Shown here: positions 35,237 through 38,789 of the stretch, piece after piece
Layout of the letters: each line of letters opens with the position of its first letter
Numbering within the stretch: the stretch's first letter is position 1
NCBI RefSeq assembly: GCF_031624395.1
Contig: NZ_JAMQON010000007.1
Location: forward strand, 124,001-188,000
Direction of reading: 5' to 3'
Length of the DNA: 64,000 nucleotides
DNA from: Halomicroarcula saliterrae
GTDB taxonomy: Archaea > Halobacteriota > Halobacteria > Halobacteriales > Haloarculaceae
Translations under genes and position numbers: made by a program
Notes under the pieces: generated by a model
Databases searched by the model: none
Seen by the model: only the letters and a program-made list of their open reading frames with translations
Told to the model about the DNA's origin: nothing

Positions 35237-36469
35237 TCAGAGCCGTACCGTCTCGCCCAGCGTCGGTGCCGAGGCCTCGAACCCCTCCGCCCGTAGCTCC
35301 TCGGCGAACGCGGCGGTCCGGTCGCCGTGGACTGCCAGCACGGGCGTGTCGCGGTAGTTGTCGAGGAAGCCGACCAGTCCGTCGCGGTCGGCGTGGGCCG
35401 AGAACTCGTGGAGTTCGACCTGCGCGCTGACGGGCATCACGCGGCCGTCGAGTTCGGCGCTGCCGGTGTCGAGCAGGGAGCGGCCCGGCGTTCCCTCGAC
35501 CTGGTAGCCCGTCAGCGCGACCTTGTTTGTGGGATGGTGGCGAATCGCCGGAACGTAGGTCATCGCGGGCCCGCCGTTGAGCATTCCCGACGTGGTGATA
35601 ATCACGGTGTTCTGCTCGGCGATGCGCTTTCGCTGGCCGTCCCGCCCGGTCACGAACCGCGCGCTCGACGTGGCCCCGCGCAACGCATCGGCGTCCCGAA
35701 GGAACTCGGGATGGCGTTTCAGCTGTTTCGTGACCCGCTGGCCCATCCCGTCGACGTAGCAGTCGATATCGTGAGCGTTACAGACTAACATCGCCTCCTG
35801 CGTTCGGCCGATAGCGAACGCCGGAACCACGACGGTGCCGCCCTCCCACACCGTCTGTTGCACGCTCTCGGCGAAGCGCTGTTCGACCGTCTCGCGGACC
35901 TCGTGAGTGACGTCCGAGTACGTCGACTCGCAGATGACCGCGTCGGCCTCGGGTCGAGCGGTCGAGGGCGCGACCAGTCGCTGGTCACCGGTGTGGAAGT
36001 CGCCGGTGTAGAGCAAGCGAGTCTCCCCATCGTCCACCAGCACGTGGGCGCTGCCGGGGATGTGACCGGCGTTGTAGAACGTCACCTCGTAGCCCGCGGC
36101 CTCGAAGGACTCGTCGTAGCCGTGGGTCTCCGAAGCCTGTGTCAGCCGTCGGACGTCAGTATCGGTAAAGGGACAGCGCGGCGTCGAGCCGTGGAGTTTC
36201 AGCGTGTCCTCGGCCAGCGTCGTCGCCAGGTCCCGCGTCGGCGGGGTCCAGTGGACCGGCGGCAGGTCGCCACTGGACATGAGCGCCGGCACCGCGCCGG
36301 CGTGGTCCAGATGGCCGTGGCTCACCACGACGGCGTCGGGGTCGACGTCGCCGACCGGGTACTGTGGCGGGGACTCGCTGGCCATGCCGTAGTCGAGCAG
36401 TAGCGACTCGTCTACGAGGACGGCGCTGCGCCCGATTTCGTCGGCCCCACCCAGGAACTGGACCTCCAT
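35237..36469 (-). CDS. beta-CASP metallo-beta-lactamase-fold ribonuclease
   Basis: 410-aa RNA-processing-type nuclease of the CPSF73/RNase J superfamily. MBL motif 2 is SHGHLDHAGAV (about 51-61), and GHIPGSAHVLV and LYTGDF (about 130-165) give motifs 3 and 4. The beta-CASP insert carries VVVPAFAIGRTQE (motif A region) and motif B/C is EFSAHADRDGLV (about 355-366). No KH domains are present, which separates it from aCPSF1 and suggests an aCPSF2-like or Int11-like role. ATG 36469 (MEVQFLGGADEIG) is the family start. The structured element at 36551-36801 lies directly upstream. Confidence 0.92.
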   Translation of the reverse strand: MEVQFLGGADEIGRSAVLVDESLLLDYGMASESPPQYPVGDVDPDAVVVSHGHLDHAGAVPALMSSGDLPPVHWTPPTRDLATTLAEDTLKLHGSTPRCPFTDTDVRRLTQASETHGYDESFEAAGYEVTFYNAGHIPGSAHVLVDDGETRLLYTGDFHTGDQRLVAPSTARPEADAVICESTYSDVTHEVRETVEQRFAESVQQTVWEGGTVVVPAFAIGRTQEAMLVCNAHDIDCYVDGMGQRVTKQLKRHPEFLRDADALRGATSSARFVTGRDGQRKRIAEQNTVIITTSGMLNGGPAMTYVPAIRHHPTNKVALTGYQVEGTPGRSLLDTGSAELDGRVMPVSAQVELHEFSAHADRDGLVGFLDNYRDTPVLAVHGDRTAAFAEELRAEGFEASAPTLGETVRL

Positions 36470-36532
36470 TGAACTCTCATAGACCGCGACGTGGTTTGCC
36501 TTCGTCGGTTCAGGGCGGCAGTCCTTAGTACG

Positions 36533-36804
36533 GAGAGCCAGACCGCAAACAGCCAGAAAGCCCCCGTGTTCTCGACTCGCGCGGCTCGCTGCGCTCCTCG
36601 GCCTTTGGCCTGCGGTGCTTGTGTCGCCGTGCTTCGTCGAGAACACGGCCCCTTTCAGTCCCGCCCATGCCGGCTGACCAACCGGCTACGGGCGGAATGA
36701 AAGGGGCGGCTGGCTTCGGGAACCCCGACGAAGCAAGCACGTGAGCAAAGCGAGCGCGCACAGCGAGTCGCGGGACCGAAGCCAGCCGGGGCTTTCTGGC
36801 TCTC
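36533..36804. other. nested inverted repeats forming a near-gapless four-way junction
   Basis: No gene lies in 36470-36839. The outer stem AGCCAGAAAGCCCC (36551-36564) pairs perfectly with 36788-36801. Inside, three hairpins abut each other. Stem A is 36565-36576 with 36636-36647 (12 bp, perfect). Stem B is 36649-36666 with 36690-36706 (about 16 bp, one bulge) and has its own GCCGG/CCGGC inner pairing. Stem C is 36708-36719 with 36776-36787 (12 bp, perfect). Only one unpaired base separates neighbouring stems, giving a cloverleaf. GAGAGCC (36533-36539) can extend the outer stem with 36798-36804. It may be a structured RNA, a cruciform site or a relic repeat. It lies between a kinase gene end and a nuclease gene start, both on the minus strand. 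Confidence 0.8.
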
Positions 36805-36839
36805 TGCATGGTTCCAGTAAACACGGCTGTACGCTCGGG

Positions 36840-38789
36840 CTACCGCAACAGCGCCGTCGGCCGTCGTGCGGCGTCCGCGAGAGACTGGCCCTCCCCGACG
36901 GCCGGCAGGCGGAGCGTGGCGACGGTCCCCTCTTCCGAAGCGAGCTGGAACGAGCCGCCGTACTGCGTGACGACCCAGTTGACGAGCCAGAGCCCGAGCC
37001 CTTTGCCGTGTTCCAGCGGCGTCTCCTGACCCGCCTCGACGACCGCGACCTCCATCTGCGGGATGCCGGGGCCGTCGTCGCTGACGGTCACGACGACCCA
37101 GTCGCCGTCGTCGCGGGCGGAAAGCGAGACGGTCGTGTCGCCGTCGGTGTCGTGGGTGATGGCGTTGGTCACCAGTTCGCCGATGGCGGTCTCGAGTTCG
37201 GTCCCGGCACAGATGTCCCGGCCGGTGTCGACGGCGACCTCGACCGTCGCGGCCGGGAACTCCTCGCGGTGTCTGTCGGCGACAGCCGTCAGGACGGTGG
37301 ACGGGTCGAGCCGGACCGGCTGGTGGGCCCGCTTTGCGAGCTTCTCCAGTTCGCGGGCCCGCTCGCTGAGCGACACCAGCCGGCGGAGCGGCCGGCGGAT
37401 TTTGGCCTGGACGTCGATCCCCTCTGGAGGGTCGTGGATGAAGTCCGTGTACCCCTCGATGACGGTGAGTTCGTTGCGGAGGTTGTGCCGGAGCACGCGG
37501 TTCAGTAGCTCCACGAGACGCGTGATGCGCTGTTGCTCGGTCACGTCCTGCTGGAAGCCGAGGTAGTGCGTCACCGTCCCGGTCTCGTCCTCGATGGGGG
37601 TCACCGTGATGCGGTTCCAGAACGGCGTCCCGTCGCGGCGGTAGTTCAGAATCCGGGTCGTGGCGGGCTGATTCGTTTCGATGCCCTCCCGCAACACCGC
37701 CACTCCCTCGGGGTCGGTGCCCGGTCCCTGAAGCATCCGGCAGTTGTGCCCGAGTATCTGGGCTTCGCTGTAGCCGGTGACCGTCTCGAAAGCGTCGTTG
37801 ACGTAGACGATGGGGTTGTCCGGCTCCGTCGCGTCGGCCATGGTGATGGGGACCTCGGCCGCATCCATCGCCCGCGTCCGGAGGCGAATCTCGGATTCGC
37901 GCTCCTTGCGCTCGGTGATGTCCCGGGCGACGCCCTGTATCGCCGTCACCGAACCCCCGTTCGTGATGGGCGTCGCGTTGATTTCCATCGGCACCTCCCG
38001 GCCGTCGCGGTGGAGGAACGTGAGTTCGAGCTGTTGGACCGTCTGCCCGTCGAGGAGCCGACCGAACGCGTCGAGCGCATCTGGCGTCGTGGCGTCGGAG
38101 ATGTGCGTCGCGAAGTTATCGCCGACGAGCGCTGCCGGCCCGTAGCCCAGCGCCCGCTCGACGGCCTCGGAGACGTAGGTGAACTGCCCGGCGGTGTCGA
38201 TGCGGTAGATGACGTCGAAGCTGTTCCGGGCGATGCCCTCGAACCGGGATTTCTCGGCCCGCAGCTGGGCCGTCCGTTCGGCCTGTTCGCGCTCGTACTC
38301 CCGGCGCTCGATGGCACGGCCGGCCAGCCGGGCGACGAGTTCGACGAACAGCTGTTCGGCCTCCGAGAAGGGGCGCTCACGCGGGTCCTCGTCGGCGAAA
38401 CAGACCGTGCCGTACACCGCATCGCCAGCGACTATTTTACAGCCGATGTACGACCCCAGACCGAAGGCCTCGTAGGCGCGCTCGGGGACGTCCGGTGACA
38501 CCCGCGCGTCCTGAACGCTCAGATGGCCCTCCAGCTGGACGGTCCGCCGACAGTACGCCTCGTCCAGCGGGCACTGCTCCCCGGGCTGGATATCGGCGTG
38601 TCCGCCGACGGCGTGCTCGATATACTGGGTCCCGTCCTCGATTCGCGTCAGGAAGCCGATGCCGGCGCCGAGCCGGCCCGTCCCGGCAGTGAGTGCCGCC
38701 TCCACCGCCGTCGGGAACGGCCGGCTCCGGTCGGCGAAGGCCTCGTACACCCGCTCACGGTAGTCCGCCGACGAGTCTGCGCCGGTCAT
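36840..38789 (-). CDS. LOV-domain sensor histidine kinase (GAF-PAS-LOV-HATPase)
   Basis: 649-aa soluble sensor kinase. A GAF domain spans about 20-160, PAS 1 about 181-295, and a second PAS about 305-418 with the LOV signature GHNCRMLQGPGTDPEGV; Cys350 is the expected FMN-adduct residue, and FWNRITVTP (about 390-398) and YLGFQQDVT supply the other conserved LOV residues (Asn, Gln). The phosphoacceptor box RVLRHNLRNELTVIEGY (His435) is the haloarchaeal HisKA variant, followed by a HATPase with N, G1 (DDGPGIP) and G2 (GKGLGLWLV) boxes. No membrane helix or receiver domain is present. Blue-light sensing is a strong inference. The output partner is not in this window. Confidence 0.9.
   Translation of the reverse strand: MTGADSSADYRERVYEAFADRSRPFPTAVEAALTAGTGRLGAGIGFLTRIEDGTQYIEHAVGGHADIQPGEQCPLDEAYCRRTVQLEGHLSVQDARVSPDVPERAYEAFGLGSYIGCKIVAGDAVYGTVCFADEDPRERPFSEAEQLFVELVARLAGRAIERREYEREQAERTAQLRAEKSRFEGIARNSFDVIYRIDTAGQFTYVSEAVERALGYGPAALVGDNFATHISDATTPDALDAFGRLLDGQTVQQLELTFLHRDGREVPMEINATPITNGGSVTAIQGVARDITERKERESEIRLRTRAMDAAEVPITMADATEPDNPIVYVNDAFETVTGYSEAQILGHNCRMLQGPGTDPEGVAVLREGIETNQPATTRILNYRRDGTPFWNRITVTPIEDETGTVTHYLGFQQDVTEQQRITRLVELLNRVLRHNLRNELTVIEGYTDFIHDPPEGIDVQAKIRRPLRRLVSLSERARELEKLAKRAHQPVRLDPSTVLTAVADRHREEFPAATVEVAVDTGRDICAGTELETAIGELVTNAITHDTDGDTTVSLSARDDGDWVVVTVSDDGPGIPQMEVAVVEAGQETPLEHGKGLGLWLVNWVVTQYGGSFQLASEEGTVATLRLPAVGEGQSLADAARRPTALLR

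What the first reader, a model, noticed from the sequence alone, without database searches (positions are those of the whole stretch)
36533..36804. Gapless four-way-junction element between a LOV kinase and a beta-CASP nuclease
Outer stem 36551-36564/36788-36801 (14 bp, perfect) encloses three hairpins that abut each other: 36565-36576/36636-36647 (12 bp, perfect), 36649-36666/36690-36706 (one bulge) and 36708-36719/36776-36787 (12 bp, perfect). One base at most separates the stems. Such tight nesting over 250 bp is most unlikely by chance and is not coding. It could be a structured RNA, the 5' leader of the nuclease mRNA (a possible self-regulatory target), a cruciform site or a relic mobile repeat.
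Basis: partly seen in the sequence, partly recalled or inferred. Interest (0 to 1): 0.85.

Follow-up and report, generated by a model that had tools for sequence, protein, structure and literature searches.

The report
Mobile cloverleaf repeat of salt-loving archaea
The odd cloverleaf-shaped DNA between two genes is one copy of a small jumping repeat, built from hairpins found all over the genomes of salt-loving archaea, whose stems change sequence freely yet stay perfectly paired, which points to the folded DNA shape itself being kept.

Summary
In detail: a 14-bp stem encloses three abutting hairpins at 36551-36801 (fold z = -11). It is not a private feature of this gene pair. The window genome (genus Haloarcula by inference) carries about 25 related loci. 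A covariance model of its ~105-nt hairpin unit finds it in 82 of 117 genomes of the order and in none sampled outside it. The core is two inverted copies of that unit. Across 42 full copies the arms differ in sequence but stay paired (97% of cells; 499 double-change cells against 161 in shuffles). G-U pairs are almost absent, and the two hairpins of one copy avoid resembling each other. Around many copies lie inverted repeats GGYNGTGTTTAGTTA and 8-bp target duplications, as on a 697-bp IS6-family insertion sequence that is intact in the same genome. Relatives have empty sites at the window locus. So it is an IS6-mobilised, non-autonomous element (MITE) whose cloverleaf is kept at the DNA level, old and without a duplication in this copy; it is not a leader evolved for the nuclease. 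A second class of copies, ending in CTAG, has an unexplained, non-coding 3-nt phase in its flanks. No earlier description was found in the open library searched.

The parts
36517..36531 (+). left terminal inverted repeat, degenerate (GGCAGTCCTTAGTAC; family GGYNGTGTTTAGTTA)
   Evidence: 36 nt before the core as in intact sister copies; the G009 orthologue (L131) reads GGCAGTGTTTAGGAA at this place
36551..36564 (+). outer stem, 5' arm AGCCAGAAAGCCCC
   Evidence: nearly invariant in 42 copies, paired in 98.7% of cells
36556..36658 (+). hairpin unit 1 (covariance model R1)
   Evidence: 109.6 bits, E 1e-24
36565..36647 (+). hairpin H1: 12-bp variable arms around a conserved loop (CTCGCTGCGC...GTGCTTGTGTCG)
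   Evidence: all 12 arm pairs show double changes across copies
36649..36706 (+). central hairpin H2 at the dyad centre, conserved stem CCCCTTTCAGTCCCGCCC
   Evidence: 99.6% of stem cells paired, little variation
36697..36796 (-). hairpin unit 2, inverted copy of unit 1 (covariance model R1)
   Evidence: 100.6 bits, E 2e-22
36708..36787 (+). hairpin H3: 12-bp variable arms, inverted homologue of H1
   Evidence: 11 of 12 arm pairs show double changes
36788..36801 (+). outer stem, 3' arm GGGGCTTTCTGGCT
36814..36827 (-). right terminal inverted repeat, degenerate (GCCGTGTTTACTGG read on -)
   Evidence: sequence; same in the G009 orthologue
35237..36469 (-). beta-CASP/MBL nuclease gene downstream (likely start ATG 36467-36469); neighbour, not part of the element
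   Evidence: Pfam Beta-Casp, Lactamase_B, RMMBL; conserved through the genus
36840..38789 (-). PAS/LOV histidine kinase gene upstream; neighbour, not part of the element
   Evidence: Pfam PAS_9, HATPase_c; blue-light (LOV) histidine-kinase models below cutoff; adjacent to the nuclease in empty-site genomes

Best explanation
The element at 36517-36827 is an old copy of a non-autonomous transposable element (MITE) of Haloarcula. Its ends are moved in trans by an IS6-family transposase, of which an intact 697-bp copy remains in the same genome (ends and duplications shown for sister copies; inferred for this one, whose ends are degenerate and which shows no target duplication). Its core is an inverted duplication of a ~105-nt hairpin unit spread through the order Halobacteriales, and it folds as a four-armed cloverleaf. 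The arms change sequence fast but stay Watson-Crick paired, with almost no G-U, and the two side hairpins of a copy avoid resembling each other. Hence I infer that the cloverleaf is maintained at the DNA level: the single strand or an extruded cruciform folds during replication or transposition, mismatches within an arm are corrected from its partner, and copies whose side hairpins could mispair into one long unstable palindrome are lost or selected against. At this locus it arrived before the split of the three species that have it, between a kinase and a nuclease gene that are adjacent in relatives. Any effect on the nuclease is a by-product of insertion upstream of its start.
For: Dispersed copies in the own genome and in 31 of 41 relatives. 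Empty orthologous sites in G044, G024, G020, G013 and G012, filled in G000, G002 and G009. Autonomous IS of about 697 bp: IS6 transposase by NCBIfam NF033587 (189 bits, cutoff 125) and Pfam DDE_Tnp_IS240; 19 of 49 copies have exact 8-bp duplications; intact copy in the own genome, L291. Hairpin MITEs with the same ends and exact 8-bp duplications: L004 in the own genome (GAGTAGCC), L065, L158, L162-L164. Covariation: 97.0% of cells paired against 79.9% shuffled and 38-45% slid; 499 against 161 double-change cells. Arms: 971 of 1008 Watson-Crick, 6 G-U, 12 A-C. H1 and H3 arms of one copy are less alike than random pairs, 5.7 against 6.7 of 13, p = 0.0002. Hairpin gain and loss at the orthologous site.
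Against: This copy has no recognisable 8-bp duplication and its left repeat is eroded. A second, numerous class of copies ends in CTAG without IS6-type repeats and has no identified transposase. Solitary units upstream of a conserved OB-fold gene on plasmids look retained rather than parasitic. Absence of G-U does not by itself exclude an RNA role if the strand read differs between copies. The H1/H3 dissimilarity could come from instability of long palindromes alone. Formation of a cruciform or folded single strand was not measured.
Confidence: 0.72

Rival explanations
1. Passive relic: the element is an IS6 MITE, but its structure has no use. Palindrome correction (template switching between arms) keeps stems perfect, and long near-perfect palindromes are deleted, so only cloverleafs survive.
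For: Exact Watson-Crick arms with few intermediates; hairpins precisely lost or gained at one locus; dissimilar H1/H3 arms are also what palindrome instability predicts.
Against: Loop motifs (CTCGCTGCG, GTGCTTGCGTCG) and the H2 stem are nearly invariant through the genus and recognisable through the order; homogenisation should also act between the inverted H1 and H3 arms, which are instead unusually unlike.
Confidence: 0.3
2. RNA element: the unit is transcribed and works as a structured RNA or promoter-proximal regulator of neighbouring genes.
For: Strong fold on both strands; 39 of 41 copies lie upstream of at least one gene and only 2 lie between convergent genes, against 60 of 275 background pairs; solitary units sit on the coding strand about 450-800 nt upstream of an OB-fold gene.
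Against: No Rfam match; G-U pairs nearly absent in arms; the window insertion is missing in most relatives; the gene calling is my own and intergenic length was not corrected for.
Confidence: 0.15
3. Plasmid origin: the hairpin unit is a transfer or replication signal of haloarchaeal conjugative plasmids (an oriT-like or Frpo-like single-strand promoter hairpin upstream of an OB-fold gene), and the chromosomal MITEs have captured it twice in inverted orientation.
For: In at least ten plasmids of different genera a solitary unit lies at a fixed place upstream of an OB-fold DNA-binding protein gene; most are typed MPF_T, and two of the three plasmids read more widely have VirB4/ATPase, primase or ArdC-like genes nearby.
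Against: Some chromosomes of other families carry 30 or more units with no plasmid context; direction of descent was not tested; transfer function is recalled analogy only.
Confidence: 0.15
4. Ancestral regulatory leader of the nuclease mRNA.
For: The element lies 82 nt upstream of the nuclease start (sequence).
Against: Empty sites with both genes in place in at least five congeners; about 25 related loci beside other genes.
Confidence: 0.03

Closest known systems
MITEs of the IS6 family (PMC7986276: 8-bp duplications, haloarchaeal members 700-750 bp, two MITEs of 227 and 336 bp listed)
   Same: Ends GG..GTGTTTAGTT, 8-bp duplications, 90-480 bp, no ORF, parent IS of about 697 bp in the same genus and genome
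   Different: The interior is a conserved multi-hairpin cloverleaf with covarying arms, not a remnant of the parent IS; hairpins are gained and lost as modules. Whether the two listed MITEs share it could not be checked
PATE and SMR-A elements of Haloquadratum walsbyi (PMC3119063)
   Same: Palindromic, transposase-free, many copies; PATEs have a variable 20-50 bp end beyond the palindrome and a short conserved terminal oligonucleotide, like the CTAG class here; SMR-A are about 110 bp with inverted repeats
   Different: PATEs lack terminal inverted repeats and target duplications and derive from IS605-type elements; the TIR class here has both. Sequences were not compared
REP/BIME and REPIN elements of bacteria
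   Same: Dispersed palindromic intergenic repeats kept by structure
   Different: REPs are 20-40 bp and tied to Y1 (TnpA_REP) transposases; here the unit is about 105 nt and the linked enzyme is a DDE IS6 transposase
Integron attC sites (recalled, not tested)
   Same: Arms vary freely while folded single-strand shape is kept
   Different: No integrase or gene cassettes were sought or seen

Membership tests
IS6-family MITE | Terminal inverted repeats matching an IS6 element | tested here: met
   L060, L063, L065, L091, L158, L161-L164, L166, L004 share GGYNGTGTTTAGTTA ends with the 697-bp IS; in the window copy the ends are degenerate but alignable
IS6-family MITE | 8-bp target-site duplication | tested here: met
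   Exact 8/8 in 6 of 16 TIR-bearing MITEs including L004 in the own genome, more with 1-base offset; not seen at the window copy itself
IS6-family MITE | Parent transposase is IS6 and present | tested here: met
   NF033587 equivalog above cutoff; L291 intact in the own genome
IS6-family MITE | Moved in trans by that transposase | not testable with these tools
   needs a transposition assay
PATE (IS605-type, palindrome-associated) | No terminal inverted repeats and no target duplication | tested here: not met
   for the TIR class, to which the window copy belongs; the CTAG class was not resolved
REP/REPIN | 20-40 bp palindrome linked to a Y1 REP transposase | tested here: not met
   unit is about 105 nt and core about 250 bp; a Y1 enzyme was not searched for
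Known structured RNA | Match to an Rfam family at gathering score | tested here: not met
   no match in the whole window
Functional RNA in general | Transcription of the element | not testable with these tools
   no expression data
Cruciform/folded-DNA element | Pairing conserved by compensatory change | tested here: met
Cruciform/folded-DNA element | Extrusion or single-strand folding in the cell | not testable with these tools
   needs chemical probing

The most novel reading that the evidence does not exclude
The ~105-nt unit is a lineage-wide DNA hairpin signal of halophilic archaea, read by shape rather than sequence (as attC sites are), used by a host or plasmid system still unknown and carried by several kinds of mobile ends. 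The CTAG-ended class adds a non-coding flank built on a strict 3-nt purine phase, which no mechanism known to me explains.
Probability: 0.2. Interest if true: 0.85.

Novelty: new variant of a known kind. Interest (0 to 1): 0.6.

Why it matters
It turns a single odd palindrome into a countable mobile family with a named transposase, and gives an unusually clean natural experiment. More than 80 hairpin arms have diverged while staying exactly paired, with neighbours kept unlike. That makes it directly testable whether archaeal cells maintain DNA secondary structure by correction or by selection. The solitary unit at a fixed place on conjugative-type plasmids is a lead to an archaeal transfer or leading-region signal.

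Tried and rejected
Rfam: nothing. Phage records: nothing. A private nuclease leader: rejected by empty sites. Protein-coding flanks in the CTAG class: the 3-nt phase suggested codons, but in-frame stops are as frequent as expected (30 against 28) and substitution rates do not differ by codon position, so rejected. Pairing between left and right flanks: no excess. A large transposon with the plasmid unit as one end: no inverted partner within 20 kb. IS630 or Helitron relation of the CTAG ends: considered from memory, not tested. Terminator-like placement: only 2 of 41 copies lie between convergent genes.

Full report
Observation. On + the energy is -179.6 kcal/mol (shuffled mean -122.1, z = -11.2), on - it is -185.1 (z = -10.9), with no shuffle as good.

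A dispersed family. A blastn search of the own genome with the 331-bp region gives 43 matches at about 25 loci. Of 41 genomes sampled among relatives, 31 have matches, some with 40-50. The phage collection has none. Twenty-eight plasmid records of diverse haloarchaea match, mostly the first hairpin only. The genus is Haloarcula by inference: G012 has a contig of the same length as the Halomicroarcula sp. SYNS111 chromosome, and GTDB groups these.

Covarying cloverleaf. Forty-two full cores were aligned (A1). RNAalifold predicts the same cloverleaf, with 38 of 74 pairs showing double changes. With that structure, 97.0% of cells pair, against 79.9% (sd 0.5) when partners are shuffled among sequences and 38-45% when partners are slid. 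Double-change cells number 499 against 161. The outer and H2 stems hardly vary; all 12 pairs of the H1 arm and 11 of 12 of the H3 arm carry double changes. The independent arm test agrees: 12.6 and 12.8 of 13 positions pair, against 8.3 and 8.5 with arms swapped between copies. Of 1008 arm cells, 971 are Watson-Crick, 6 are G-U and 12 are A-C. An RNA under slow compensatory evolution usually shows G-U intermediates (general knowledge), so this points to DNA. Within one copy the H1 and H3 arms, which are inverted homologues, are less alike than randomly paired arms (5.7 against 6.7 of 13, p = 0.0002). That favours the cloverleaf over one long hairpin.

The unit. The core is dyad-symmetric: outer arm, H1, half of H2, then the inverse. 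A covariance model of the unit (R1, 107 positions) finds two units in the window, one on each strand. In a sample of the order it finds units in 82 of 117 genomes and 36 of 48 genera, up to the reporting cap of about 33 per genome. In a phylum-wide sample all 17 genomes with matches belong to this order. Other families hold both inverted pairs and solitary units.

Ends and transposase. Thirty-six nt outside the core many Haloarcula copies carry GGYNGTGTTTAGTTA in inverted orientation. A pattern search led to IS copies of about 697 bp with the same ends, a transposase of about 211 aa and exact 8-bp duplications. The protein is IS6 family by NCBIfam (189 bits, cutoff 125) and passes Pfam DDE_Tnp_IS240. 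The published features of archaeal IS6 elements (700-750 bp, 8-bp repeats, GG tips; PMC7986276) fit. Hairpin MITEs with these ends have exact 8-bp duplications in 6 of 16 cases, including L004 in the own genome; 19 of 49 IS copies do. The own genome keeps one intact IS (L291) and a decayed one. Minimal MITEs with little or no hairpin core exist (L161, 90 bp; L158, 122 bp).

The window copy. Its left repeat (36517-36531) is eroded, its right repeat (36814-36827) is recognisable, and its length of 311 bp matches intact MITEs of 313-315 bp. The flanking octets differ, so there is no duplication left. At the orthologous junction G002 and G009 also carry the element. G044, G024, G020, G013 and G012 have the two genes adjacent without it. 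G009 lacks exactly the H1 hairpin; G002 has two blocks of extra small hairpins inside H1. Hairpins therefore behave as modules.

A second class. Many other copies end in CTAG instead, with empty sites in relatives. The distance from CTAG to the core is 2 mod 3 in 91 of 109 cases. A purine phase of period 3 runs only between CTAG and core (0.73 against 0.42 and 0.39; outside, 0.54, 0.52 and 0.49). It is not coding and the two flanks do not pair. I have no explanation.

Plasmid units. In at least ten plasmids a solitary unit lies about 450-800 nt upstream, on the same strand, of an OB-fold 'DNA-binding protein' gene, with a long conserved non-coding leader between. Most of these plasmids are typed MPF_T, and two of the three read more widely carry VirB4/ATPase, primase or ArdC-like genes. 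A link to plasmid transfer is a hypothesis only.

Mechanism and limits. Shown: dispersal, empty sites, shared ends and duplications with an IS6 element, covariation, module gain and loss. Inferred: mobilisation in trans, folding as DNA in the cell, and arm maintenance by correction plus loss of mispairing copies. Not tested: transcription, protein binding, effect on the nuclease. The genomes searched are one per species, so recent single insertions are under-sampled. Gene orientation around copies (25 tandem, 14 divergent, 2 convergent; background 155, 60, 60) rests on my own ORF scoring and is not corrected for spacer length. The literature search was limited to an open-licence library; Haloquadratum PATE, SMR and MITE elements (PMC3119063) are the nearest described relatives in kind.

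Noticed in passing
L093, L094, L096, L097, L099-L101, L103, L104, L106, L107 (plasmids): A ~450-nt strongly conserved non-coding leader plus a solitary hairpin unit precede an OB-fold DNA-binding protein gene on plasmids of many haloarchaeal genera; candidate leading-region or replication signal.
   Followed up: partly
CTAG-class copies, e.g. L053, L075, L082, L168-L173: Strict, non-coding 3-nt purine phase between the terminal CTAG and the core, and CTAG in register (91 of 109).
   Followed up: partly
L130, L159, L166: Extra perfect small hairpins, in pairs around TGATCA or similar, nested inside the H1 or H3 loops; their stems also differ between copies.
   Followed up: no
L016, L055, L064, L069, L076: Tandem repeats of about 45-48 bp made of one outer-stem half, its flank and CTAG.
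   Followed up: no
window 35237-36646: The long beta-CASP ORF is over-extended into the element; homology begins at the ATG at 36467-36469.
   Followed up: yes
L075 and L082: The same locus in two species holds the element in opposite orientation with different stems, like the 'switch repeats' reported for Haloquadratum.
   Followed up: no
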